The notes beneath the pieces are model-generated. The model was not told the DNA's origin, did not search any database, and was given only the letters and a program-made list of their open reading frames with translations. From a virus, in IMG/VR virus record IMGVR_UViG_3300028774_000021, positions 1 to 37,688 of that record: 37,688 nt of DNA. One strand, 5' to 3'. The position numbers and the translations under genes are program-made. Shown here one piece after another: positions 20,524 through 37,552 of the stretch (position 1 is its first letter; each line of letters starts with the position of its first letter).

Positions 20524-22533
20524 TTAATGTGCGCCTGCTCTACCTGTCGCTGGGGCTGAAGGAGCTGGCTTATTAGTAGTCATGTGAGTATAAATATTAG
20601 CAACAGATTCTTGTATTCCAGAAAACATTTTTGTCCACATGTCGTTCAGTTGAGTTGTGTTCTGAACCATGTTGTCTTTGAAGTTATTTGTGGCAGCTTG
20701 TTCTTCTGTAGTTTTAGTCGGGTCAGCTTTTAACAACTTACTTCCTTCCCCGCCATTAGTGAACGACTTAATCTCGGCATCTAAACGGTCAGGGGCGATG
20801 TTAGGAAATAAACTTTTCATTGTAAAATAACCTAATGTAGTATCCGTTCCGCCATTTTGGTTTTTGAGTCGTTGCAATACGGCTTGTATTAATTTTCCTT
20901 CATTTTTAGGGTCTCTTTTATCCCTATCTAATAAGTCCATCCTTCCTGCGTGCTCCGGAAATAAATCAGCCACTGAACTAAATACCAAAGCTTTCATTCG
21001 ATCGTTTTGAGGGTTTTGTATTACATCCTGAAACGAAGCCATGTCGGAGCCGACCCTCTTATCTTGAGTTATCCCTTTAACTGACGAGAATGCCGCCAAC
21101 ATATTATTTGCTACATTGTAGTTTGGTTTGTCAGACCTGTCCATGTAGCTTCCCATTACTTGTTGTTGTATGTCAAACTTTTCTTGAACCCGAGTAAAAT
21201 CATCCCCGCTTACTCCTGAACCCTTTATGCCTGATAAAACAGCTACCATGCGAGACAGAGCGTCGGTAACATTTATGCCATATCGGTCATATTGTCCGCC
21301 TTCAGTTAAAGCCCCCGATTTCATACCGAGCGATTTTTCCATCCCGTACCCTTGAATAGTTTGGTTGTACCAGTCATCAGCCGTTCCCCTTGCTCTTATT
21401 CTATCCGCGGCTAGACCTCCAAATTCTCCTCTATCCATACCAAACCCGACATACCTTTCGCCTAATTCACCGTCAGTGTCCATCGCATTCTTCAAATAAT
21501 CCCAAGACTCTCCGCCGCTTCTACCGCCAGTAGCTGCATTCATGCCCGCTAAACTCAATAACCCCTTATTAGATTCACGACCGCTACCCATAGTTCCAAT
21601 CAAAGCTGCCGCGATTCCTACTACCGCATTCATTTTCATGGCCATTTGAGCACTCATTCCGGCTATTGAAGAAACTCCCATAGAAGCCCCCATCATCATC
21701 TCGGGTATGCTTCCAGAAGTAGCCCCGTTAACAAGCGACGTCATCCCCTGAGCCCCCATCAATGTTCGGTCAAATACTGGATTAGCTTTGTTGCCACCCA
21801 TTGCTCCAGCTATCTTGCCGTCGTATTCTTCAACGCGTTTTTGAGCAGCTGCTGCTTCTTCGGCTGTCATAGCGTTATCTCTGTCATGCATGGCATCTTT
21901 TCTGCCTTCACGCATTTTATTCAAAAACGAGTTGGGGTCTGTACCTCCCCTACCGCTCGTTATTTCGTCGGTCAAAGCCCTTATCGCTTCGGCTAAATCT
22001 GCTTCAGCATTTTTCTTTTCTGCTGATTCTTCAGAGTTTATTTGTTCGTCTTCTTTGTCGTACTTTTTCCCTATTTTTTCGTACTCGCCTTCTCTTAACC
22101 TTTCATATTGTTGGTCAATATTTTTTCTATGTAGTGGGTCATTTTGATACGCCCCGTCCATAGTTGCTATACGTTTTGCTTTTTCAATCTCAACTTGTTT
22201 GTCGATACTGTCGTAATCGCTGCCCATGCGACTTTGCATATCAGCGCGACGAGCGTTGTATTTATCGGATATGTCTTGGCTGGTACGTTCAGACTCCATC
22301 TTCTTCACGTTCTCTATGGCTTCTTTTGTTCCCATACCTCGTTGTTGCTGAATCTCATTACGAACTTCATCTATCAAACGAGTATCAGGTGCCAAAGAAC
22401 CTCTAGAATCACGATAATCTGCAGTTCCGTCTTGACCTATTCTACCGCTATCAGGCAAACCGCTACCGACAGAATCAATCTCTTGTTTTAGCTGTTCAGC
22501 ATTACCCCGTATATTTACAACCACGTCTCCCAT
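20524..22533 (-). CDS. Tail tape measure protein
   Basis: A 669-residue protein, largest in the tail block before the baseplate. Residues 55-245 are highly charged helix/coiled coil; residues 265-316 are a Met-, Ala- and Gly-rich hydrophobic stretch (MMMGASMGVSSIAG, NAVVGIAAALIGTMG), as in tape measures that insert into the membrane; the C-terminal half is polar. Using the general rule of about 1.5 Angstrom per residue, the tail would be around 100 nm. The start overlaps the stop of the upstream chaperone ORF by one base. No lytic domain was seen within it. Confidence 0.82.
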   Translation of the reverse strand: MGDVVVNIRGNAEQLKQEIDSVGSGLPDSGRIGQDGTADYRDSRGSLAPDTRLIDEVRNEIQQQRGMGTKEAIENVKKMESERTSQDISDKYNARRADMQSRMGSDYDSIDKQVEIEKAKRIATMDGAYQNDPLHRKNIDQQYERLREGEYEKIGKKYDKEDEQINSEESAEKKNAEADLAEAIRALTDEITSGRGGTDPNSFLNKMREGRKDAMHDRDNAMTAEEAAAAQKRVEEYDGKIAGAMGGNKANPVFDRTLMGAQGMTSLVNGATSGSIPEMMMGASMGVSSIAGMSAQMAMKMNAVVGIAAALIGTMGSGRESNKGLLSLAGMNAATGGRSGGESWDYLKNAMDTDGELGERYVGFGMDRGEFGGLAADRIRARGTADDWYNQTIQGYGMEKSLGMKSGALTEGGQYDRYGINVTDALSRMVAVLSGIKGSGVSGDDFTRVQEKFDIQQQVMGSYMDRSDKPNYNVANNMLAAFSSVKGITQDKRVGSDMASFQDVIQNPQNDRMKALVFSSVADLFPEHAGRMDLLDRDKRDPKNEGKLIQAVLQRLKNQNGGTDTTLGYFTMKSLFPNIAPDRLDAEIKSFTNGGEGSKLLKADPTKTTEEQAATNNFKDNMVQNTTQLNDMWTKMFSGIQESVANIYTHMTTNKPAPSAPATGRAGAH

Positions 22534-22865
22534 TATTCTTCTTTTTTATCAAATTCAGAGTAGTCTAAATTGTCAAATGCCTCATCAATTTCGGCTTGAC
22601 TTAAAGCATTTCCGTCTTTGTTTTCATAATAACCTACCGATTCATAATCTTTATCGCTTACATCGTTGGATTTAGATGCCTTCTTGTTGATATCTAACTC
22701 TTCTTGATAGTCTATAAGCATATCAATAAAATTCATTTCTCGGTGCGCTTTGGAACCAAATGGCACATTATATTTCTTTCTCCACCAATAATCTATGGGG
22801 AATGAATGCCATTGTTCTAAAAACTCACTCGCTTTCCTTCTCAGTGTCTTTTGTTGCTGGAACAT
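22533..22865 (-). CDS. Tail assembly chaperone, second (overlapping) ORF
   Basis: A 110-residue protein if started at the ATG at 22865-22863. It overlaps the preceding chaperone ORF by 41 bp in a different frame, and its open frame extends without stop up to 22940. Contents are a basic helix (MFQQQKTLRRKASEFLEQW), SFPIDYWWRKKYNVPFGS and an acidic tail. The WWRKKYNVPFGS segment is a pattern I recognise from T-type tail chaperones. Gene order (tube, chaperone, overlapping ORF, tape measure) is that of lambda G/GT. Relative to the first ORF the frame is +1 (equivalently -2), so frameshift fusion is possible, but an internal start is also available. Confidence 0.72.
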   Translation of the reverse strand: MFQQQKTLRRKASEFLEQWHSFPIDYWWRKKYNVPFGSKAHREMNFIDMLIDYQEELDINKKASKSNDVSDKDYESVGYYENKDGNALSQAEIDEAFDNLDYSEFDKKEE

Positions 22866-23214
22866 CTGGCTCGCTAGATAAATAAAGTTCTTTTGAAACT
22901 GATTCGTACCAAGGCAATAATTGCTGTTTGTAAAAACCAATTAGCTCTTTAGCGTCCAAAGGATCCATTTTAGTATAATCTTCCAACTCCAACATACGTT
23001 TTACCTTCGGGCAAAGCACTTGAATAAATACTATCGCGTCTACTAAATCTAATGCTAAATACATTGATTTAATTCCGGAAGCCGACATTGAGCCGTAACG
23101 GTTATTGGTCAATGCTAACTTCATTGATTCCATGTCAAGAAGTTGTCCCACGTTGGGGAATTTTACAATTAGCTTTTCGCCTTTGAATATACAGGCGTGT
23201 TCTTTTTCAATCAT
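22825..23214 (-). CDS. Tail assembly chaperone, first ORF (G-like)
   Basis: A 129-residue acidic protein. I chose the ATG at 23214 (MIEKEHACIF); the frame also opens three codons earlier at a TTG, which is less likely. It has short strands (ACIFKGEKLIVKFP) followed by helices, and ends in a Glu-rich tail. It lies between the tube gene and the tape measure, where tail chaperones that bind the tape measure are encoded. A terminator at 23250-23274 lies just upstream, so its expression would depend on readthrough from the tube transcript or a local promoter. Confidence 0.7.
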   Translation of the reverse strand: MIEKEHACIFKGEKLIVKFPNVGQLLDMESMKLALTNNRYGSMSASGIKSMYLALDLVDAIVFIQVLCPKVKRMLELEDYTKMDPLDAKELIGFYKQQLLPWYESVSKELYLSSEPDVPATKDTEKESE

Positions 23215-23249
23215 GATTTTCAATTTTTACGTTTATTTATAAAACAAAA

Positions 23250-23274
23250 AGGTACTCCGTTTTGCAGAGTACCT
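23250..23274 (-). terminator. Terminator hairpin after the tail tube gene
   Basis: Eight-bp perfect stem (AGGTACTC at 23250-23257 with GAGTACCT at 23267-23274) and a 9-nt loop. On the minus strand the stem is followed by a T-run (TTTTTGTTTT). It lies 21 bp past the tube stop and would trim transcripts that carry sheath and tube, reducing the downstream chaperone and tape measure messages. Confidence 0.85.
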
Positions 23275-23295
23275 CTTTTAATAGTTGATTTCACA

Positions 23296-23799
23296 CTAAA
23301 CGACGCCGTTGAACAAAATTGGTTCAAGATACTCAAACTCAGTATCACGTCCTGAAATTTGCCCTTCTTGGATATCAAATCCTTCACGGGTGACAAAGGC
23401 AGCGTTGATTTTAGCAAACGTTTCAAACTTTGCTTTAATTTGCCCTGTTTTTATATCAATAGCCCCGTCTTTCACCTTTCGCATTATAGCTATTTCCAGC
23501 CCTTCTTCTTGCAGAAGCAATGCGTTTGTCCAGTCTTCGATGGAAGCTGAATTACGAAAACTTCCCCTGACCATTTTATTAGCCAGAAGATTGAAATTGA
23601 TAGTGTACGAGGAGCAAGATAAAGAACCGCTCCATTCTACTGGAGGAAGTTCATCTGGGTTGAACCGACCTATACCCGTAACCTTGCTTCGGCGGATATT
23701 TTCAGTAACTCGAACGCTTTTCATTTTACCGATAGTTATCCCATCGATTTGTATGATTGCGATTGGCGCCGTCATTACCTTTTCGTTTTTATTAGCCAT
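23296..23799 (-). CDS. Tail tube protein
   Basis: A 167-residue protein of the size and beta pattern of contractile-tail tube subunits (IAIIQIDGITIGKMKSVRV, then WSGSLSCSSYTINFN, and a C-terminal EGQISGRDTEFEYLEPIL). It directly follows the sheath gene, as tube genes do, and is followed by a terminator. It forms the inner hexameric tube through which DNA passes. Start ATG at 23799 is preceded by a very A-rich leader. Confidence 0.85.
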   Translation of the reverse strand: MANKNEKVMTAPIAIIQIDGITIGKMKSVRVTENIRRSKVTGIGRFNPDELPPVEWSGSLSCSSYTINFNLLANKMVRGSFRNSASIEDWTNALLLQEEGLEIAIMRKVKDGAIDIKTGQIKAKFETFAKINAAFVTREGFDIQEGQISGRDTEFEYLEPILFNGVV

Positions 23800-29139: not shown

Positions 29140-30630
29140 TTATACCAAGGAAGTTCCAATGTTGATGAAACGAACCATTTTCTTTGGTGCGTACAAGAAC
29201 GGCGTACCGTACATTAGAATCATGAAACGGAACGCTGGCGATAATACTGCTAAATCCATTTTCATAAGCGGAGCCAACTGAGCGAACTCAATAACCTCGT
29301 TGTCGAACTGTTGCATCATCGCTTGGTCCGTGTCAGGCAAGAAACGGTTGTTGTCGCGAATGCTTCCAGCGGCTGCGCCATCATAACCGCGATTCAAATC
29401 GTCCAAAGAAACATCGAACAATGGGAAGAACTGGCCACTTGCCAAACCGCCTCTTTTTGTACGATAAATTCTGTAACCTGTTGCGGCATTAATTCCACCA
29501 CCAGTAGTAAATTTCAAATCACAAGCGGCTCCGACAACGGCAGTTACTGCTGCAGTGTTGTAAATTGACAATGCTGATTCACCCTTGCGGTTCAAAGCGG
29601 TAACGGCATAATATACAGCTCCTGCGTCAGTAGAGAACCACTTGCTTGAAGCAACGGCACCTGATACTGCGATAGGAGTAGTTGCATCCCAAATTGGAGC
29701 TGCTGGAGCGGCTACTGAATTGGCTGCGCTCAAAGAAGTACGGAAAGGTAATTTCTTGAAGAACACGTCGTGGTTCAAACCGATCTGACCAAATTGAGAA
29801 TCAAAAGCCTGAACTTTCTGTCCCATGATACCATTCGACATGGCAGCAGTATTTGGTTGGATGAATTTGTTACCGTAGAAGTTTTTCACGAAGTTACTCA
29901 ATACTGCAGGAGGTGCATAAATCTGAGTTCCTAAACCGTAATTTTCCACAATGGTATTGGCAGCAGTTTCGATAGAATCTTCTTGTAAAGCTTTACCGCG
30001 TAAATCCACGATATGTTCAGAATCCATATAAGCTCCGAAGTTAGCCCAAGCATCAGACTGAATCTGTTGAGCTATAAACCCATTAAATTCCTGAGGGATT
30101 ATTCTTTCGTCACCGAAATAAAGAGATTTGTTCAACTTGCGAAGAATCCAAAGAGTACCGTCTTTGATAGTACGTTCCATAACGTTACCAATCATGGTAT
30201 TTACCAAAGTCATTTGGTGAGTGACGCTCTTGGTAACTCCAAGATATTTCACCAATTGAGCACGACGTACATAAGTCGAGTCTTCTTCATCCGGAAGTTC
30301 ACCTTCGGCATTAAAACCACCGCGATCCTGGCCATAGCTGGTCTGTTGGTTATATTCTTCCACTGTATTGAAAGCAGCTTTCTTTGGTATGTCTTTCCAC
30401 AAACGAATATCAGATTCCTTGAAAGTGATATGTTTTAAAGTTTTTTCCAAAGACTCAACTTTCAACGGAGCTCCGGAAGCATCCGCCATGTCGGTGTTTT
30501 CACGACCAGTAGTTTCGCCAGCACTTAACGCTTTATTCAGAGCGTCAACGCTTTCCCCCGAAGAAGATCCGTAACCGTCATTACCAGCGGCGTATCCGTA
30601 ATCAGAAAGATTGATTGATAATTTTTCCAT
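29140..30630 (-). CDS. Major capsid protein with Ig/Fn3-like insertion
   Basis: A 496-residue HK97-fold-type capsid protein. Residues 1-63 are a Gly/Ser-rich propeptide-like region; the conserved part starts at TLKHITFKESDIRLWKDIP (64-82) and includes AFNTVEEYNQ, RRAQLVKYLGVTKSVT and a terminal PAFRFMILMYGTPFLYAPKK. Residues ~305-410 look like an Ig/Fn3 domain inserted before the last strand set (YYAVTALNRKGES, GYRIYRTKRGG). A LEKT site at 61-64 is a plausible cleavage point that would give the mature N-terminus. Preceded by the protease-scaffold gene and followed by a strong terminator, as expected for the most abundant head protein. Confidence 0.87.
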   Translation of the reverse strand: MEKLSINLSDYGYAAGNDGYGSSSGESVDALNKALSAGETTGRENTDMADASGAPLKVESLEKTLKHITFKESDIRLWKDIPKKAAFNTVEEYNQQTSYGQDRGGFNAEGELPDEEDSTYVRRAQLVKYLGVTKSVTHQMTLVNTMIGNVMERTIKDGTLWILRKLNKSLYFGDERIIPQEFNGFIAQQIQSDAWANFGAYMDSEHIVDLRGKALQEDSIETAANTIVENYGLGTQIYAPPAVLSNFVKNFYGNKFIQPNTAAMSNGIMGQKVQAFDSQFGQIGLNHDVFFKKLPFRTSLSAANSVAAPAAPIWDATTPIAVSGAVASSKWFSTDAGAVYYAVTALNRKGESALSIYNTAAVTAVVGAACDLKFTTGGGINAATGYRIYRTKRGGLASGQFFPLFDVSLDDLNRGYDGAAAGSIRDNNRFLPDTDQAMMQQFDNEVIEFAQLAPLMKMDLAVLSPAFRFMILMYGTPFLYAPKKMVRFINIGTSLV

Positions 30631-30654: not shown

Positions 30655-32097
30655 TTATGCTACAATTTGAATTCCAAATTCGCGCTTAACGCGGTTAATA
30701 ATTGCTTCGGGGAGATTTTTGTTTGCTTCAAAATGGGTACAAGCCGCTCCGTATTCTTCGTCGTATCCGCCCTTTTGGAAAGTTGCTTCATCCAAAATAG
30801 CGGCTATCGCCTTTTTCTGATTTTTCATACTGACGCGTTGAAGTCCATCTTCAGCTGGTTTTTCATTGAAGTCATTGTCCCCCGCTTTAGCGAAATTCTT
30901 ATCGACTGCTGCGGTGTTGCGTAATGATTTTGGAGCTGGCGATGAAGAACCAAATTCTTCAAGTTGTTGACTCAGCCCTAAAATAGTTGATTCGTTGCCT
31001 TTGATGACGTCCAATAATTCGGCTTCACGTATAGCGGACGAGTCAAGCTTTTGAGAACATTCTTTAATAAGAACGGCAGCAGCAGTAATGAAATTTTTGG
31101 TTTGTTTGTGAGAATCGGCGATGGCTTTTTCAATCGTGTCAAAGCGATTTTCTTTTTTCACTTCTTCATTTTCTTCAGCCTTTTTCACTTCTTCTTTAGC
31201 TTCTTCTTTAGCTTCTTCAGCTGCCGTTTCTTCAGCTTCTTTGGCTGGTTCTTCTTTTGTTTCCGCTTCTTCGGCTTTTACAATCGTTTCAGGACTTGAT
31301 TCAATATCAAGACCTAGAACTTCATATGCTTTTTCGATATCAGCATCGGTAACTGTTTTTCTATCATTCATATTTGAAATTTTTAGTAGCAATGAATATA
31401 TTTTTTCTGCTTTTTCAATATTAATAGTTGGTATGTCTATAAAGATACGCTCCATGACTTCTGACTTGCAAAAAGTTTGGTTCTTTACTTTCTTATCTAC
31501 AGATTCTTTGACCAGAGGAGCAGCTGAAGTAGTGTCCATCGATTTTTCTTCTTCGTCTTCTTCAGGATCTGAACCTTCGCCCTTGATAATGTCAGCAAAC
31601 GTTTGAGCGTTTTTAGGTTGGTGTGTTATGGCAACTCCCGTGATGCTTGCCTTAGTAATAATTTTATAATCGGGGGATTTTTTGTCGTTTGACTTTCTTT
31701 GAAGAACTTTACCTTCGATTGAGTAACCGAGACGGCGGGTTTTGCTATCCTTTGCTAATGTAAGAGCAAGCTCATATACGTCACGAGCTATCTTGCTAGA
31801 GGGATACAAATCAGTTTCAATGTATAAACCTTCAGGTCTAATTTCACCTTTGCTCGGTTCGCCTACGATTGTAGCGGGAGCTCCCTTAGCTTGATGGTGC
31901 CAATTTACGGTTCCGCTCTTCATTAAAGGTTCTATGTCAAACCCCTTTGGGTCTAAGAACTCGCCGTCTGAATCTTTGTCCATTGTTGAGGCGATACCGC
32001 CAAGCCGCATTATTTCAACGCCCGTAGTTTCGTCAATAGCTTTTTCGATTGCTACTGGACACCAAAATTTAAAATCGTCTTTGAGTACTCGTTCCAT
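30655..32097 (-). CDS. Prohead protease fused to scaffold-like region
   Basis: A 480-residue protein. Residues 1-170 match the HK97/U35-type prohead protease: candidate catalytic His67/His68 (NWHHQ), Ser126 in LGYSIEG, and GVAITHQP (154-161). Residues 175-480 are acidic and coiled (many Glu/Lys/Ala, 270-320), as in scaffold proteins. The tetrapeptide IEKA occurs at 17-20, 227-230, 254-257 and 322-325, possible self-cleavage points. The start codon immediately follows the U-run of the terminator hairpin at 32103-32137. Such fusions provide scaffold and protease from one chain and are digested during maturation. Confidence 0.82.
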   Translation of the reverse strand: MERVLKDDFKFWCPVAIEKAIDETTGVEIMRLGGIASTMDKDSDGEFLDPKGFDIEPLMKSGTVNWHHQAKGAPATIVGEPSKGEIRPEGLYIETDLYPSSKIARDVYELALTLAKDSKTRRLGYSIEGKVLQRKSNDKKSPDYKIITKASITGVAITHQPKNAQTFADIIKGEGSDPEEDEEEKSMDTTSAAPLVKESVDKKVKNQTFCKSEVMERIFIDIPTINIEKAEKIYSLLLKISNMNDRKTVTDADIEKAYEVLGLDIESSPETIVKAEEAETKEEPAKEAEETAAEEAKEEAKEEVKKAEENEEVKKENRFDTIEKAIADSHKQTKNFITAAAVLIKECSQKLDSSAIREAELLDVIKGNESTILGLSQQLEEFGSSSPAPKSLRNTAAVDKNFAKAGDNDFNEKPAEDGLQRVSMKNQKKAIAAILDEATFQKGGYDEEYGAACTHFEANKNLPEAIINRVKREFGIQIVA

Positions 32098-32162: not shown

Positions 32163-32417
32163 TTATTTTTCTTCTAAAGTATTTTTCTTTTTCGCAAAAA
32201 GAGCCCCGACTAAAGATAATACCGCAACAGTCTGCAAAACTGATTCCGGAATAAATGTTTGAAACTTTTCAGGCAACGCCATGAACGATAAAGAAACTGA
32301 AACTGCGGTCGCGCTTAGCGCTATTAATATCCCGCAAAACCATTGATATATTTTAGGAGTCTCTTTCTTCAAGTCCTCCCAAAAATTTATCAAGTAAACA
32401 ATAATTTTCCCCTTCAT
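32163..32417 (-). CDS. Holin-like two-TM protein
   Basis: An 84-residue protein with two predicted membrane helices (about 25-47: WFCGILIALSATAVSVSLSF, and 57-76: PESVLQTVAVLSLVGALF), a charged N-terminal segment and a Lys-rich C-terminus (AKKKNTLEEK). Size and topology fit class II-type holins. It follows the muramidase and lipoprotein genes, so a lysis cassette is likely. It would make holes in the inner membrane so the endolysin can reach the wall. Confidence 0.7.
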   Translation of the reverse strand: MKGKIIVYLINFWEDLKKETPKIYQWFCGILIALSATAVSVSLSFMALPEKFQTFIPESVLQTVAVLSLVGALFAKKKNTLEEK

Positions 32418-32424
32418 AATATTC

Positions 32425-32850
32425 TTATTTAAATCCTGGTATTAATGTTGCGTCAGGCACATAATCCGTCGGCTTGTAATTTTTATTTTGAGCTTCAAAC
32501 ACGCGAGTAGACCACCCCTTATAATATTTCCAATATGTTGGTTTTTTATTGCACAAATTATAGTATCTTAACAACCAAGAGAATTTATACAATTCTATAA
32601 AATCGCTGGTAGACATAAACGTTTTCAATTTGTATTCATTTATGGCATTGTTTAAAGAATCTAACTTTTTTTGTTGCGAAGCTATGACCTCTTGAAGTTT
32701 ATATGTCGAATACAATAAAGTGTCATTTTTAGCTTTTAGCGTAATGATTGAATCTTTCAGCGGCTTGTCAAAAGACAATGTCTGAATTTGTTTAGGGGAA
32801 CACGCTGCAAAATTGATAGATAATAGTAACAGCAAAATTACTTTTTTCAT
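32425..32850 (-). CDS. Lipoprotein with coiled coil and GH108-like C-terminal helices
   Basis: A 141-residue protein. Residues 1-16 are a lipoprotein signal (MKKVILLLLLSINFAA) with lipid-modified Cys17. Residues 30-75 form a likely coiled coil. Residues 80-120 (FIELYKF...LLRYYNLC, then YWKYYKGWSTRVFE) match the two closing helices that normally end GH108/PG_binding_3 muramidases, including the F-x-K-GW-x-x-R type end. The preceding muramidase lacks exactly this part. The start overlaps its stop (ATGA). It may be a spanin-like outer-membrane lipoprotein that also completes or tethers the lysin. The domain transfer is my inference. Confidence 0.72.
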   Translation of the reverse strand: MKKVILLLLLSINFAACSPKQIQTLSFDKPLKDSIITLKAKNDTLLYSTYKLQEVIASQQKKLDSLNNAINEYKLKTFMSTSDFIELYKFSWLLRYYNLCNKKPTYWKYYKGWSTRVFEAQNKNYKPTDYVPDATLIPGFK

Positions 32851-33278
32851 AAGGCGTTTAATTTTGATATAAGTTCTGGGTCAACCACACCGTCTTGTTT
32901 TACGTGTACCAAACCTTCTGCCATCTTTATAGCTGGTGGTATTCCGAGATTCACAGCAGCGTTGACTAATACTCCGGCAATTGGTTGAGTCTTTATACCG
33001 TTGCCGCCTATCTTATTCCAAAAGTTTCTTAGGTAGAAACTCAATACGCTGTCATCTAATCCTGGTATTGCGCCTAGATTTTTGGGGAAATTAACTTTAT
33101 CTTTTTTAGCAATATCAACGTACTTCCACACAAGTTCGTTCGGCCAAAAGTTACGCGCTATTCCCCCGATCGTTTCCCCTCCTGCATCGTCTTTGTCGTT
33201 TACATACCCAGTGCGTTTGTTTTGAGAATATCCTTCAATTGAGAGGACAGGTCTTATTGCTAAAAGAAAATCAGCCAT
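32847..33278 (-). CDS. GH108-type N-acetylmuramidase (endolysin), C-terminally short
   Basis: A 143-residue protein with the N-terminal GH108 pattern: SIEGYS with candidate catalytic Glu15, then NDKDDAGGETIGGIAR (27-42). The PG_binding_3 start follows (FYLRNFWNKIGGNGIKTQPIAGVLVNAAVNLG, split over 81-112) and the chain ends at DGVVDPELISKLNAL. Family members usually continue another 30-40 residues with two helices ending in a KGW-x-x-R segment; here those helices seem to be in the next ORF. It degrades peptidoglycan for lysis. It has no signal peptide, so it needs the holin. Confidence 0.8.
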   Translation of the reverse strand: MADFLLAIRPVLSIEGYSQNKRTGYVNDKDDAGGETIGGIARNFWPNELVWKYVDIAKKDKVNFPKNLGAIPGLDDSVLSFYLRNFWNKIGGNGIKTQPIAGVLVNAAVNLGIPPAIKMAEGLVHVKQDGVVDPELISKLNAL

Positions 33279-33279
33279 T

Positions 33280-33642
33280 TTATTTTATTGTTAAAGATGT
33301 GAAATCAATGCAATTTTTATTTAGAAAGTCAATTAGTTTTGTGGACTTATTTGAGTTATCTAACGACAGAAATTTTGATAACTCAGTTCCATCGTTTTCC
33401 AAGTACTCCTTAAACCCGTTTTCTAAAAGGTATATTTGAAACCCTTTGCGTATTGCTTCTTGGTATTCGGGCTTCAAATCGCTTAGAAGCATAGTCTTGT
33501 CCATATCCTCAATTAAATGCGGATACTCAAAATTTTTCATTAAAGGGAAATCACCTTTAAATGGGATAAGTTCGCTCGGCTTCTTTTTTAACAAATACGC
33601 TTTTGCTAATGTCCCTACTGTTGAAACTAAATTGTAATCCAT
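33280..33642 (-). CDS. Small protein between toxin-like gene and lysis cassette, unknown
   Basis: A 120-residue protein that I do not recognise. It is mostly helical with a basic N-terminus (LAKAYLLKKKPSELIPF), a central KPEYQEAIRKGFQIYLLENGF and an acidic-to-basic tail. It lies between the kinase-ART gene (5 bp upstream) and the endolysin (1 bp downstream). Possibilities are a minor head protein, an immunity or chaperone partner of the kinase-ART protein, or a lysis regulator; nothing in the sequence decides. Confidence 0.55.
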   Translation of the reverse strand: MDYNLVSTVGTLAKAYLLKKKPSELIPFKGDFPLMKNFEYPHLIEDMDKTMLLSDLKPEYQEAIRKGFQIYLLENGFKEYLENDGTELSKFLSLDNSNKSTKLIDFLNKNCIDFTSLTIK

Positions 33643-33647
33643 ATAGT

Positions 33648-36008
33648 TTATTTTTTTACGATTATTTTACTCCTATTTAACACAACCATAAATGAATTTC
33701 CGCGCCCGTTTCCGTCCGGAGCAATCAAAGCATCATACCCCTTTAAAGCGGCGTAAACACCGATAGCTTCACGATTATGATGTCTTGTATTGTCATAAAT
33801 TGCTGAATACACGTCAGCGTCTGCGTTCTTTGGCTTCTTTAAAGCGTCCAGCTCTTCTTTAACAGTTACGTTGGCTTTAAACAAATCGTTAACTTCTGCT
33901 TTCATTGTCGCTACCTTATCTCCCATTTCATCAACCCCTTTCGTAACTGCTTTGTCGATTACCTTATAATGATTGTTCATGAACCATTCTTGAAATTCTT
34001 GAACTGGATAACTATACGGGTTGGTGAAAGTATTCTTTTGTTTTATTGCATTATTTTCATACCGATATTTACTAAACATTAAAGATGTTTTAGAGTTTGG
34101 CATTTTCAAAATGTACACGTTTGAATTGGGAGCTTTTTCAGTGACAGTTCCCCCGTTTGACGTAACCCATTTAGTTATATTTTTACCAAAGAAATCGTCA
34201 AACTTAGGGTAATCAGGTTTATCGTCGTCGTCTAATTTTCCCCAATCTATGCTATCAATAGTAAGTTGATGGTCAACTAACGATGCTTCGTCCCAATGCA
34301 TATCAGCTTTTATATCCGCCGTTACTTTTTCGGTAATGTGTAATAATTCGTCTTTCTTTAGTTCTAGCTCTTTGTATAAATTGTCCAATTCAGCTTGCTT
34401 AGCCATAGCCGCTTGAGTATCGAATGTTGTAAGTTTTTCAATTTCTTTTTTTAAATCTTCAATCTTAGCAACCTTTGCACTTTTGTCCATTGTACATTCC
34501 AATATCTGACCTCCGATATGTGCGTATTGGTGAGCGTGAGAATACGCGTCAGACTTTTTATAATCAGCTTCAGTTCTTTGCTGATTTACCCCATCATTCA
34601 CGTGAAAATAAATACCTTGACCATAATACCCCATAGTACCATAAAAGCACTCATCTGTGTATTTGAACTCGTCAGCCCAATATAAAGCGGTCTTTCCTCT
34701 GCTGTCATCGAGACCCCTGAATAATTGTATATCACCATTGGCTATTTTATCCCAATAATTCTTATGTTCAACTACCAAAGGTCTTGCATCAAATCCGCGA
34801 GATTGACAAATAGTGTCTAATAATTCCCAACCGTGTTTGCCCGTATTATTCAGTTTGCTGTCAGCACTCGAACCGCTCGCTTGAGACCAAAAATCCTTTA
34901 ATTCATCATCCGAAAAGTCCCTGTACATATCAACGTCTGGAAGTAATGTCCTTGGTAAAACAGTACGGTTTAATTTCTTTTCAACGTCTTCAATATCTTT
35001 TTTTATTTTTTCAAGACTCGCGAAACGCTTGGTCATGACGTCCGCTAAAACCGCATCGCCTGATAAAGAAATAAAATTCAGAACATCATCCTTTTTCTTG
35101 ATTACTTCATTTATTTGCTCGACCTTTTCTTTATTGGTTAGATTACCTAAAACAGTGGGATTATATTTCAGCATGCTGCCCCAGTCATTGACGTCATTGT
35201 CAAGTCCCTTCATACCACCTTGAGCTTTATAAAACAAAGAACCGCCGTTATCAACTCTGACTAACCGCCCTGCTGAATCAATTAATATATTGTCGTTTTT
35301 ATAGACATCCCAATTTGACAATAGCGCGTCGACGGCATACCCTTTAGCCATATCAGGGTAATTAGAAGAATCAGGAACTTTGGTAAAAGGTATAAATTTG
35401 GACAACAATGTTTTATTGCCTTGACCATCATCATACATTTCCATGTCAGGAACACGCTGCCCGAGTATATGATAAAGCTGCGTCGCCATGTACTCGGAAG
35501 CTACGTGTCCGTTGGAAGTATTACTCCCCTTCTTCATCACATATTGATTGCCCTTCGAGTCTTCAACTAACTGAGCCCCCGTACTTCCACCGAGTGCTTT
35601 AATTACCTTAAGATTGCTTATATCTTTTGGGAACATATCGTTTACATACGCAACATTTTTATCCGCTTTTTTGCTTGTTTGTTTAGCGTTACCCGCTAAC
35701 ACATGCCCCTTGTATACTCGCCAATCGTATGTCGTTGTAGCCCCAGGAGTTAGAGTCCATATATACACAATTCCATCAACGTTTTTAGTTTGGCCAGGAA
35801 GTATTGCCTTGCATATTTCAGCGTCTTGAGAAACTTCGTTTAAAAAATCGGCGATGGATTTTGATACATAAAGGTGATATTCGTAATCATCCATGAAATC
35901 GTCGGACTTTATCTTATACGCGTCACAAGCCTTTATCAATGTATCGTAAGAAGAATCGTCCAACGCAAACTGGGCGATCCTCTCCAATGCTACTCTGTAT
36001 TTATCCAT
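33648..36008 (-). CDS. Kinase-like / ADP-ribosyltransferase-like fusion protein in head gene cluster
   Basis: A 786-residue protein. A Trp-containing module lies at 72-101 (VYIWTLTPG...YDWRVYKG). Residues ~135-260 look like a HipA/PI-kinase-type fold: glycine-rich LGGSTGAQ (139-146), Lys159/160 (YVMKKG), Glu172, the loop NWDVYKNDNILID (232-244) and RVDNGG (251-256) as metal-binding DFG equivalent. Residues ~425-786 look like an ADP-ribosyltransferase: QLFRGLDD with Arg431, GYYGQGIYF (460-468), a ~240-residue helical and coiled insertion, and the closing GYDALIAPDG...VVLNRSKIIV (757-784). By position this could be an internal head protein injected with DNA, as T4 Alt is. Activity is not shown. 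Confidence 0.78.
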   Translation of the reverse strand: MDKYRVALERIAQFALDDSSYDTLIKACDAYKIKSDDFMDDYEYHLYVSKSIADFLNEVSQDAEICKAILPGQTKNVDGIVYIWTLTPGATTTYDWRVYKGHVLAGNAKQTSKKADKNVAYVNDMFPKDISNLKVIKALGGSTGAQLVEDSKGNQYVMKKGSNTSNGHVASEYMATQLYHILGQRVPDMEMYDDGQGNKTLLSKFIPFTKVPDSSNYPDMAKGYAVDALLSNWDVYKNDNILIDSAGRLVRVDNGGSLFYKAQGGMKGLDNDVNDWGSMLKYNPTVLGNLTNKEKVEQINEVIKKKDDVLNFISLSGDAVLADVMTKRFASLEKIKKDIEDVEKKLNRTVLPRTLLPDVDMYRDFSDDELKDFWSQASGSSADSKLNNTGKHGWELLDTICQSRGFDARPLVVEHKNYWDKIANGDIQLFRGLDDSRGKTALYWADEFKYTDECFYGTMGYYGQGIYFHVNDGVNQQRTEADYKKSDAYSHAHQYAHIGGQILECTMDKSAKVAKIEDLKKEIEKLTTFDTQAAMAKQAELDNLYKELELKKDELLHITEKVTADIKADMHWDEASLVDHQLTIDSIDWGKLDDDDKPDYPKFDDFFGKNITKWVTSNGGTVTEKAPNSNVYILKMPNSKTSLMFSKYRYENNAIKQKNTFTNPYSYPVQEFQEWFMNNHYKVIDKAVTKGVDEMGDKVATMKAEVNDLFKANVTVKEELDALKKPKNADADVYSAIYDNTRHHNREAIGVYAALKGYDALIAPDGNGRGNSFMVVLNRSKIIVKK

Positions 36009-36010
36009 GA

Positions 36011-37552
36011 TTACCCTTTGGTTTCTTCAAATAATAAGGATTCGGCTTTCTCAATTGACATTTCGTTTATTTGATCTTCAAACGATTTTTCAATTACTTC
36101 CGGAACGATAACTGTTTCTTGAGAAGTTTCAGCCTTTTCAAAAGTTTCAACGCTCGAAACAAACTCATTATCGTCCGCCTTCGTCAAAACCTGCAATGCT
36201 TGAGTTTCCCAGTCTTTGTCCTTTGTGCCTAAATATTTTTGAAAATTGGTGCTTTGTTTTCTCAGATTAGCTCTAGTTGCAGTTCTTCGTTCGTTGAGTA
36301 TCTTTGCAAAAGTTCGGGTGGTAAATTGCGCTGGGTCAATATTGTTTTCGTGTCTGATAATTAAATCCAGAAGTTCTTGACGTTCTTTTGCATCTTCAGC
36401 CGCATCGTCCAAACGTGGAGCTGAATCAAATTCGTAATCTTGAAAACGACTCTTCATAGTTTCAATCGTTTCATGGATAGTCAAGTAAATCTCCGAAACA
36501 ACCCCGCGGGACAAAATAGCTTTTGTGTCCTCGTTTTCAGACAATGTATTAACGTCTTTATTCGTCATTACCATTATACGCCCCGTAAATTCAAAATTGC
36601 TTTTAACGTCATCTGGATCTCCGATAATTCTCTTGCCCGAAGCTGAACAAGCCTTTTTCATAACCGAAGCACAGTCGGCGCGGGTAATGACCTTATCAGT
36701 ATCGTCGAATAATATGATTTTGCCGTTGTGAGCCTTTAGGATAGTAAGAAGTTGCTTTCCGGAAGCTACGTCCGTTGCTTCAAAGATGTCATAATCTCCA
36801 TCTCCAGGATTGTCTCCTTCTTGGAATGGTTTCATGTTCAGTTCTTTGGCGAGTCCATTAAATCCGTATGTTTTACCAATACCTGCTCCCCCCGCTGAAA
36901 TCATGAACCTTTGGCCATCGTTTTCAAGAAATTCCAAATACTTGGCATTCAAATCGAATATTACTTCGTCGGGTTGAATGTAGTTAGGGTCTTTTATTTT
37001 TTGTTTGTAAACAAATTTGTCGTAACGTATTCGGTCAGCCTTACCGATAAGCTTGTTAAACGTCTTTTGAACACGAGGGTCGTTTTTGTTTAAATACCAT
37101 TCTTCGCGTATAACTTCCTGACCATCTAAGTCTACTTCCGCTCCGTCGGCTATTTCATCAGTGGAAGCCGCAGGTTTGGCTCCTCCTCCAACCATTTTGC
37201 TTATTTTGGCTTGCTTAGCCGTGTGGTCGTCTAATGTGCCCGCCGTACTGATTCCCGAAATATCAATCCCGCGCTTTTCAAGTTCTTCGCGGGCAATGAT
37301 GCGTTGTTCGGCTTTTGCATTCTTTGCTCCGGCAAATGTTATTAATTTTGAATCATCAGTTTTAGAAGCCCATTCTTTTAGAGTATCATTGCTCATTGGC
37401 TTAGCAGTAGAGCTAGAAGTTACACTCCCCCTGCCGCCTTGCTTTCTCCAGTCTTCTTTCCCTGAAGACAACAACGTCCATACTAGCGAGCCGTCTTTAG
37501 GGTGAATGTCGCCAATTGAATGCGCTTTATTAATAACATTATCTTTATCCAT
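36011..37552 (-). CDS. AAA-type ATPase in head gene cluster
   Basis: A 513-residue protein. Residues 13-36 carry a Trp module (SLVWTLLSSGKEDWR) also seen in the next gene. A linker of short helices follows (EWASKTDDSKLITFAGA, then REELEKRG). Residues ~200-420 form an AAA-type domain: Walker A GGAGIGKT (221-228), Walker B KIILFDDTDK (278-287) and the sensor-like RIMVMTNKDV (325-334). The C-terminal ~50 residues hold FEKA (471-474), IEKS (487-490) and IEKA (500-503). The gene lies 2 bp before the kinase-ART gene. Its task is unknown; possibilities are DNA packaging, a virion-carried motor, or an assembly factor. Confidence 0.78.
   Translation of the reverse strand: MDKDNVINKAHSIGDIHPKDGSLVWTLLSSGKEDWRKQGGRGSVTSSSTAKPMSNDTLKEWASKTDDSKLITFAGAKNAKAEQRIIAREELEKRGIDISGISTAGTLDDHTAKQAKISKMVGGGAKPAASTDEIADGAEVDLDGQEVIREEWYLNKNDPRVQKTFNKLIGKADRIRYDKFVYKQKIKDPNYIQPDEVIFDLNAKYLEFLENDGQRFMISAGGAGIGKTYGFNGLAKELNMKPFQEGDNPGDGDYDIFEATDVASGKQLLTILKAHNGKIILFDDTDKVITRADCASVMKKACSASGKRIIGDPDDVKSNFEFTGRIMVMTNKDVNTLSENEDTKAILSRGVVSEIYLTIHETIETMKSRFQDYEFDSAPRLDDAAEDAKERQELLDLIIRHENNIDPAQFTTRTFAKILNERRTATRANLRKQSTNFQKYLGTKDKDWETQALQVLTKADDNEFVSSVETFEKAETSQETVIVPEVIEKSFEDQINEMSIEKAESLLFEETKG

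What the first reader, a model, noticed from the sequence alone, without database searches (positions are those of the whole stretch)
33648..36008. Kinase-like and ADP-ribosyltransferase-like domains joined in one virion-cluster protein
A HipA/PI-kinase-type fold (139-146 Gly loop, Lys159/160, NWDVYKNDNILID, RVDNGG) is followed in the same chain by an ART-type region (QLFRG, GQGIYF, closing VVLNRSKIIV). The gene is placed among head genes just before the lysis cassette. T4 packages the ART Alt in its head and injects it with DNA; a packaged protein carrying two separate modifying activities would be a candidate host-takeover effector. Domain calls are by eye.
Basis: partly seen in the sequence, partly recalled or inferred. 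Interest (0 to 1): 0.85.

Follow-up and report, generated by a model that had tools for sequence, protein, structure and literature searches.

The report
Two-enzyme phage takeover protein
A tailed phage, probably of Bacteroidota, carries among its head genes one protein that joins a HipA/CtkA-like protein-kinase domain to a PARP-like ADP-ribosyltransferase domain, and the same pairing recurs in more than half of 120 related proteins from phages and bacteria, so it looks like a widespread injected host-modifying tool whose chemistry is still untested.

Summary
ORF 33648-36008 (minus strand, 786 aa, intact, dN/dS 0.034) has a kinase domain at 120-345. Its AlphaFold model aligns best with solved kinases CtkA (Z 14.4), PI4KIIa, HipT, actin-fragmin kinase and HipA. 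K159, E172, D234, N240 and D253 are present in 119-120 of 120 non-redundant relatives. Residues 393-786 are ART-like with a ~205-aa helical insertion. R431-G432 and G463-x-G-x-Y467 are conserved in all 14 orthologues. A profile of this family against the PDB draws almost only PARP15 and tankyrases, below significance one by one. The usual catalytic glutamate is not found there, so ART activity is less certain than kinase activity. No Pfam, PHROG or NCBIfam family covers either domain; Kinase-PolyVal, ART-PolyVal and PARP models do not match. The pairing is not a one-off: 63 of 120 kinase relatives also carry an ART of one of three types, in either order, and several are fused to portal or minor-capsid proteins. 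In all orthologues the gene sits between an AAA+ ATPase and the head protease and capsid genes. Best reading: a head-associated, injected dual-enzyme effector of the 'polyvalent' kind. Packaging and both activities are inferred. New variant of a known kind.

The parts
33648..36008 (-). kinase-ART fusion protein, 786 aa (P0001)
   Evidence: intact ORF, 14 full-length orthologues, dN/dS 0.034
35823..36008 (-). N-terminal helical region, residues 1-62
   Evidence: DSSP on the model
35715..35810 (-). small 'KA..GqTK..DGi.YiwT......DWR' module, residues 67-98, shared with the neighbouring AAA+ protein
   Evidence: reciprocal profile matches among orthologues, best 1e-7 and 1e-9; weak (0.016) for the window's own copy
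34974..35651 (-). HipA/PI4K/CtkA-type kinase domain, residues 120-345
   Evidence: VIA-align Z 14.4 to CtkA 3akk, 12.4 PI4KIIa, 12.1 HipT, 11.6 actin-fragmin kinase, 11.4 HipA
35571..35594 (-). Gly-rich loop, residues 139-146
   Evidence: G141/S142 in 118 and 114 of 120 relatives
35532..35534 (-). Lys159, ATP-binding lysine position
   Evidence: 119/120
35493..35495 (-). Glu172, helix-C glutamate position
   Evidence: 120/120
35289..35315 (-). catalytic loop NWDVYKNDN, residues 232-240 (D234, N240)
   Evidence: D234 119/120, N240 119/120
35241..35258 (-). RVDNGG, residues 251-256 (D253, metal-binding Asp position)
   Evidence: D253 119/120
34434..34832 (-). ART-like core, first part, residues 393-525
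   Evidence: alignments A4 and A8; profile similarity to PARP15/tankyrase
34713..34718 (-). R431-G432 (position of PARP His-Gly)
   Evidence: R431 in 14/14 orthologues, K in phage SP-15 only
34608..34622 (-). G463-Q-G-I-Y467 (position of PARP GxGxY)
   Evidence: G463, G465, Y467 in 14/14 orthologues and invariant in A8
33813..34433 (-). mostly helical insertion inside the ART-like domain, residues 526-732
   Evidence: model secondary structure; absent in the portal-fused relative L116
33651..33812 (-). ART-like core, second part, residues 733-786 (GVYAALKGYD..NSFMVVLNRSKIIV)
36011..37552 (-). AAA+ ATPase, constant upstream neighbour, phrog_1250-like
33280..33642 (-). 120-aa protein of unknown function, constant downstream neighbour
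   Evidence: present in all orthologous loci
32847..33278 (-). GH108 endolysin (variable insert)
   Evidence: PF05838 4e-13
32425..32850 (-). lipoprotein, possible spanin
   Evidence: lipobox by eye
32163..32417 (-). small membrane protein, holin-like
   Evidence: by eye
30655..32097 (-). head maturation protease
   Evidence: phrog_1028 5.5e-31
29140..30630 (-). major capsid protein, SPO1-type
   Evidence: phrog_752 5.6e-86

Best explanation
A late-gene, head-associated dual-enzyme effector of the 'polyvalent' kind. The protein is made with the head proteins, goes into or onto the capsid, and enters the host with the DNA. There the HipA/CtkA/PI4K-type domain phosphorylates one or more host proteins and the PARP-like ART domain attaches ADP-ribose to a host macromolecule (probably mono-ADP-ribosylation, since no catalytic acid is seen), together shifting host machinery or defence in the phage's favour. 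Shown here: ORF, predicted kinase fold, invariant kinase active site, conserved ART motifs and profile similarity to PARPs, recurrent kinase-ART pairing, head-operon position. Inferred: packaging, injection, both activities, and targets.
For: Kinase fold: CtkA Z 14.4 over 207 residues, then PI4KIIa, HipT, actin-fragmin kinase, HipA. Catalytic residues kept in 119-120 of 120 relatives. ART: A8 profile against all PDB sequences returns 31 PARP15/tankyrase sequences among 33 matches at E<=10 with motifs in register; PARP1 score 27.4 against a maximum of 17.9 in 60 shuffles; strand order. Pairing: 63 of 120 non-redundant kinase proteins carry an ART of three types, in both orders; only 3 of 639 other long ORFs in the same loci do, one of them a further kinase protein. 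Window-type ART and the ART preceding the kinase in giant phage proteins are one family (hhalign probability 96, P 1.8e-9). Pfam on 31 viral relatives: 13 ADPrib_exo_Tox, 6 ART, portal families 4+2, 3 minor capsid, 1 MuF. A relative in phage fHe-Yen8-01 is annotated 'phage particle associated protein'. Synteny with AAA+, protease and capsid genes in the orthologues. Head-packaged ARTs have precedent in T4 Alt and are predicted for polyvalent proteins (PMC5512222, PMC9503650).
Against: No virion proteomics or enzymology for this protein. Position 772/773, where other ARTs carry the catalytic Glu, is Ser-Phe in the window clade (Asp-Phe/Tyr in the other orthologues). Fold search of the ART region gave only coiled-coil matches. 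About half of the kinase relatives show no ART with these profiles. The nearest cultured phages with the same capsid type (Bacteroides DAC19, Chryseobacterium MA9V-3) have no such gene in the stretches read, so it seems dispensable for this head type.
Confidence: 0.55

Rival explanations
1. Active kinase, catalytically dead ART-like domain: the R-Y-x domain only binds NAD, ADP-ribose or a modified target and directs or regulates the kinase.
For: No conserved acid at the catalytic-glutamate position across the window-type family (Ser, Asp, Met, Pro), while the kinase active site is invariant. PARP13-like inactive PARPs are a precedent (own knowledge).
Against: R431 and Y467 are almost invariant; D759 is the one invariant acid and could serve; active mono-ARTs without Glu exist (PARP10/PARP15 type, own knowledge); most of the commoner partner ARTs (exo type) that were aligned have R, STS and ExE.
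Confidence: 0.25
2. Not packaged: made late and acting inside the infected cell (keeping host functions off, superinfection exclusion, timing of lysis) or on phage head proteins during assembly.
For: Late operon position next to an AAA+ ATPase and, in the window group, lysis genes; no proteomics for this phage.
Against: Relatives are fused to portal, minor capsid and MuF domains, the ART alone is fused to a portal in L116, and one relative is annotated as particle-associated.
Confidence: 0.25
3. The kinase serves the ART: the kinase modifies the ART, the ADP-ribose or the same target, so that the two domains form one reaction sequence rather than two independent effectors.
For: Three ART types are paired with one kinase family, in both orders and also as nearby genes (Forza gp78/gp80; L040, L079).
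Against: Co-packaging of independent weapons would give the same pattern; about half of the kinase proteins have no detected ART.
Confidence: 0.2
4. Structural minor head protein whose enzyme-like folds are decayed.
For: Head-operon position; large helical insertion.
Against: Invariant kinase catalytic residues and low dN/dS are not expected of decayed enzyme folds.
Confidence: 0.07

Closest known systems
Polyvalent proteins of phages and conjugative elements (Iyer et al. 2017, PMC5512222)
   Same: Multidomain proteins with ARTs and kinases encoded beside head genes, predicted to be packaged and injected.
   Different: The kinase does not match Kinase-PolyVal (PF18762) and the ART does not match ART-PolyVal (PF18760); the kinase is HipA/CtkA/PI4K-like; the recurrent kinase-ART pair was not found described in the passages read.
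T4 Alt and Alt/MuF-fused ARTs
   Same: ART placed with head genes; Alt is packaged and injected.
   Different: Alt has no kinase and belongs to the R-S-E class (own knowledge); the window ART is R-Y-x and PARP-like.
HipA / HipT / CtkA kinases
   Same: Same fold and the same kinds of catalytic residues (residue roles from own knowledge).
   Different: No HipA_C or HipA_2 match for this protein; not a toxin-antitoxin locus; fused to an ART in a phage head operon.
PARP15 / tankyrase (ARTD) catalytic domain
   Same: GxGxY motif, strand order, sub-threshold profile matches.
   Different: Arg instead of His in the first strand, no catalytic Glu, ~205-aa insertion, no PF00644 match.

Membership tests
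HipA/PI4K/CtkA kinase fold | two-lobed kinase fold of this branch | tested here: met
   Z 14.4 CtkA, 12.4 PI4KIIa, 12.1 HipT, 11.4 HipA on a predicted model
HipA/PI4K/CtkA kinase fold | Lys, Glu, catalytic Asp, Asn and metal Asp | tested here: met
   K159, E172, D234, N240, D253 in 119-120/120; the scan patterns covered D234 and D253, not K159, E172 or N240
HipA Pfam families (HipA_C, HipA_2) | significant HMM match | tested here: not met
   none for P0001; weak E-values of 0.007 and 0.22 in single members of A1
HipA/PI4K/CtkA kinase fold | phosphotransfer to protein or lipid | not testable with these tools
   needs an assay
Kinase-PolyVal (PF18762) | HMM match | tested here: not met
   0 of 7 records at E<=10
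ADP-ribosyltransferase superfamily | first-strand R/H and second-strand Y/S motifs | tested here: met
   R431-G and GxGxY467 invariant in 14 orthologues
ADP-ribosyltransferase superfamily | catalytic acid in the later strand | tested here: inconclusive
   position 772/773 is SF or D[FY]; D759 invariant but its role is unclear without coordinates
ADP-ribosyltransferase superfamily | ART fold | tested here: inconclusive
   strand order fits by eye; fold search dominated by the helical insertion; profile similarity to PARPs
PARP (PF00644), ART-PolyVal (PF18760), ADPrib_exo_Tox (PF03496) | HMM match | tested here: not met
Polyvalent / Alt-like injected effector | encoded with head and packaging genes | tested here: met
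   constant neighbours AAA+, head protease, major capsid protein
Polyvalent / Alt-like injected effector | present in the virion and injected | not testable with these tools
   only indirect: portal and minor-capsid fusions of relatives and an annotation of a relative

The most novel reading that the evidence does not exclude
A large, unnamed family of phage kinases of the HipA/CtkA/PI4K branch works as a regular partner of ADP-ribosyltransferases: the two modifications are chemically or functionally coupled on the same host target, a form of phage takeover not yet described, spread over phages of Bacteroidota, Pseudomonadota, Actinomycetota and perhaps haloarchaea.
Probability: 0.25. Interest if true: 0.85.

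Novelty: new variant of a known kind. Interest (0 to 1): 0.62.

Why it matters
ART effectors delivered by phages are known mostly one at a time. Here one kinase family without a Pfam, PHROG or NCBIfam name in the scans made keeps company with three different ART types across very different phages. That makes a specific question testable with cultured phages (Dolphis gp117, fHe-Yen8-01 gene 129, ST4 gene 109, Forza gp78/gp80): is host takeover at entry a two-step modification by phosphate and ADP-ribose, and of what?

Tried and rejected
Direct family searches for the window protein (Pfam, PHROGs, NCBIfam, PDB sequences) gave nothing real. hhalign of the window ART against the exo-type ART profile was not significant (the first run used a wrong option). 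The top PDB row (CpcN) was rejected: five repeats each under 7 bits. The same-slot gene of Chryseobacterium phage MA9V-3 has no kinase or ART match and looks like a fibre-type protein by eye. No paper was found for the virion annotation of fHe-Yen8-01. The shared 39-aa module gave no match in cultured phages. PF18762, PF18760 and PF00644 were tested and not matched.

Full report
What was checked. The window is the whole of a 37,688-base virus record with myovirus head and tail genes, all on the minus strand as far as identified. Against a 96%-identical copy (L022) it shows dN/dS 0.034, with kinase, ART and insertion all at 0.04 or lower. Direct family scans found no significant family, and phmmer found no PDB sequence.

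Kinase domain. tblastn in cultured phages hits 19 records, all within residues 123-332, 27-37% identical; several of those proteins are annotated 'ADP-ribosyltransferase'. The alignment A1 shows an invariant Gly-Ser loop, Lys159, Glu172, NWD(232-234), DN(239-240) and RxDxGG. An AlphaFold2 model from 14 orthologues has mean pLDDT 83. Its residues 119-345 align to H. pylori CtkA (Z 14.4, 207 residues, 3.8 A), PI4KIIa (12.4), HipT (12.1), actin-fragmin kinase (11.6) and HipA (11.4). Over 120 non-redundant relatives K159 is kept in 119, E172 in 120, D234 in 119, N240 in 119 and D253 in 119. Part of that (the NWD and RVDxGG positions) is favoured by the scan patterns; K159, E172 and N240 are not. 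The fold is settled as far as prediction allows; activity is likely but untested.

ART-like domain. Residues 393-525 and 733-786 carry a motif set kept in all orthologues: R431-G432, F448, C454-F455, G463-x-G465-x-Y467, Y495, G750-x-Y-A-A-x-K-G-Y-D759, N778-R779. The strand order in the model (427-433, 466-470, 501-507, 513-515, 760-763, 772-776, 782-785) follows the ART order, by eye, with a mostly helical insertion of about 205 residues. Fold search of this half was filled by coiled coils. A portal protein of another phage, L116, carries the same domain without the insertion. Giant phage proteins (L050, L057, L071, L076, L077, L086, L096) carry a related domain in front of the kinase; profile comparison gives probability 96 and P 1.8e-9, against P 0.66 for the reversed profile. 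The combined profile (A8) searched against 177,635 PDB sequences gives 33 rows at E<=10, of which 31 are PARP15 or tankyrases, each E 0.2-1.9, with R-G over the PARP H-G (PARP15) and GxGxY in register. These 31 are not independent of each other. PARP1 scores 27.4 against a maximum of 17.9 for 60 shuffles. Taken together this supports a PARP-like ART with R in place of H. The canonical Glu position holds Ser772-Phe773 in the window clade and Asp-Phe or Asp-Tyr in the other orthologues; only D759 is an invariant acid. Catalysis is therefore open.

Pairing. In 120 non-redundant kinase-domain proteins (cultured phages, viral contigs, bacterial genomes) 42 carry an exo-type ART, 12 the window type and 9 the reversed-order type, 63 in all. 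In 639 other long ORFs of the same loci only three carry an ART: one is itself a kinase-ART protein, and two lie near a kinase gene. The exo profile was built from kinase-linked ARTs, so the control is somewhat biased, but Pfam independently finds ART families in 13 and 6 of 31 viral members (possibly overlapping), and portal, minor capsid or MuF domains in up to 10. In Gordonia phage Forza the two domains are in nearly adjacent genes by the portal gene.

Context. The orthologous loci that extend far enough share the order AAA+ ATPase, kinase-ART, ~120-136 aa protein, head protease, major capsid protein; the lysis genes are an optional insert. Capsid relatives are Bacteroides phages DAC (44%) and Chryseobacterium phage MA9V-3 (39%), so a Bacteroidota host is likely, but the stretches read of those phages lack the kinase-ART gene. 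The kinase-ART protein and the AAA+ ATPase share a ~40-aa module; it occurs on other, unrelated phage proteins as well and might be a common targeting tag. That is a guess.

Comparison with the literature. Polyvalent proteins with ARTs and kinases beside head genes are described (PMC5512222), and about 44% of phage ARTs lie in contexts suggesting head packaging (PMC9503650). The Pfam models for the polyvalent kinase and ART do not match this protein. In the searches made no paper was found that describes this kinase family or its pairing with ARTs; most subscription journals and all preprints were out of reach.

Verdict. It is a new variant of a known kind, with a broader pattern behind it than one window could show.

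Noticed in passing
window 35715-35810 and AAA+ gene 36011-37552 (N-terminus); L207, L209-L215, L219: A portable ~40-aa module 'VGD.HP.GkWVWTEYKPGKFDWR' shared by the kinase-ART protein, the AAA+ ATPase and several unrelated phage proteins, sometimes in tandem; possible packaging or assembly tag.
   Followed up: partly
L022:2987-6053 and equivalents upstream of the AAA+ gene (outside the window): Genes resembling a radical SAM/SPASM enzyme and a PIG-L-type deacetylase, and a ~480-aa gene with a weak glycosyltransferase match in L111, precede the AAA+ gene; ORFs of similar size sit there in the other orthologous loci. Possible sugar or DNA modification cluster.
   Followed up: partly
L116:4150-7362: Portal protein fused to the window-type ART and, by eye, a JAB/MPN-like C-terminal domain.
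   Followed up: partly
L011, L013, L014, L016 downstream of the kinase-ART gene: Genes annotated NUDIX hydrolase or nucleotide phosphatase lie two genes downstream of the kinase-ART gene; NUDIX is fused to 2 of 31 viral members.
   Followed up: no
BFVD hits R4T6E8 (HHTV-1) and L7TJZ0 (HSTV-2): Haloarchaeal tailed viruses encode structural matches of the model.
   Followed up: no
L144, L148, L170, L174, L175; L164, L172, L173: Kinase-domain relatives on Pseudomonas syringae-group and Endozoicomonas contigs; prophage or other origin not examined.
   Followed up: no
L147 (899 aa): Two tandem copies of the kinase domain in one protein.
   Followed up: no
window 22533-23426: Overlapping minus-strand ORFs just downstream of the tail sheath gene, in the place where tail assembly chaperones with a programmed frameshift often lie.
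   Followed up: no
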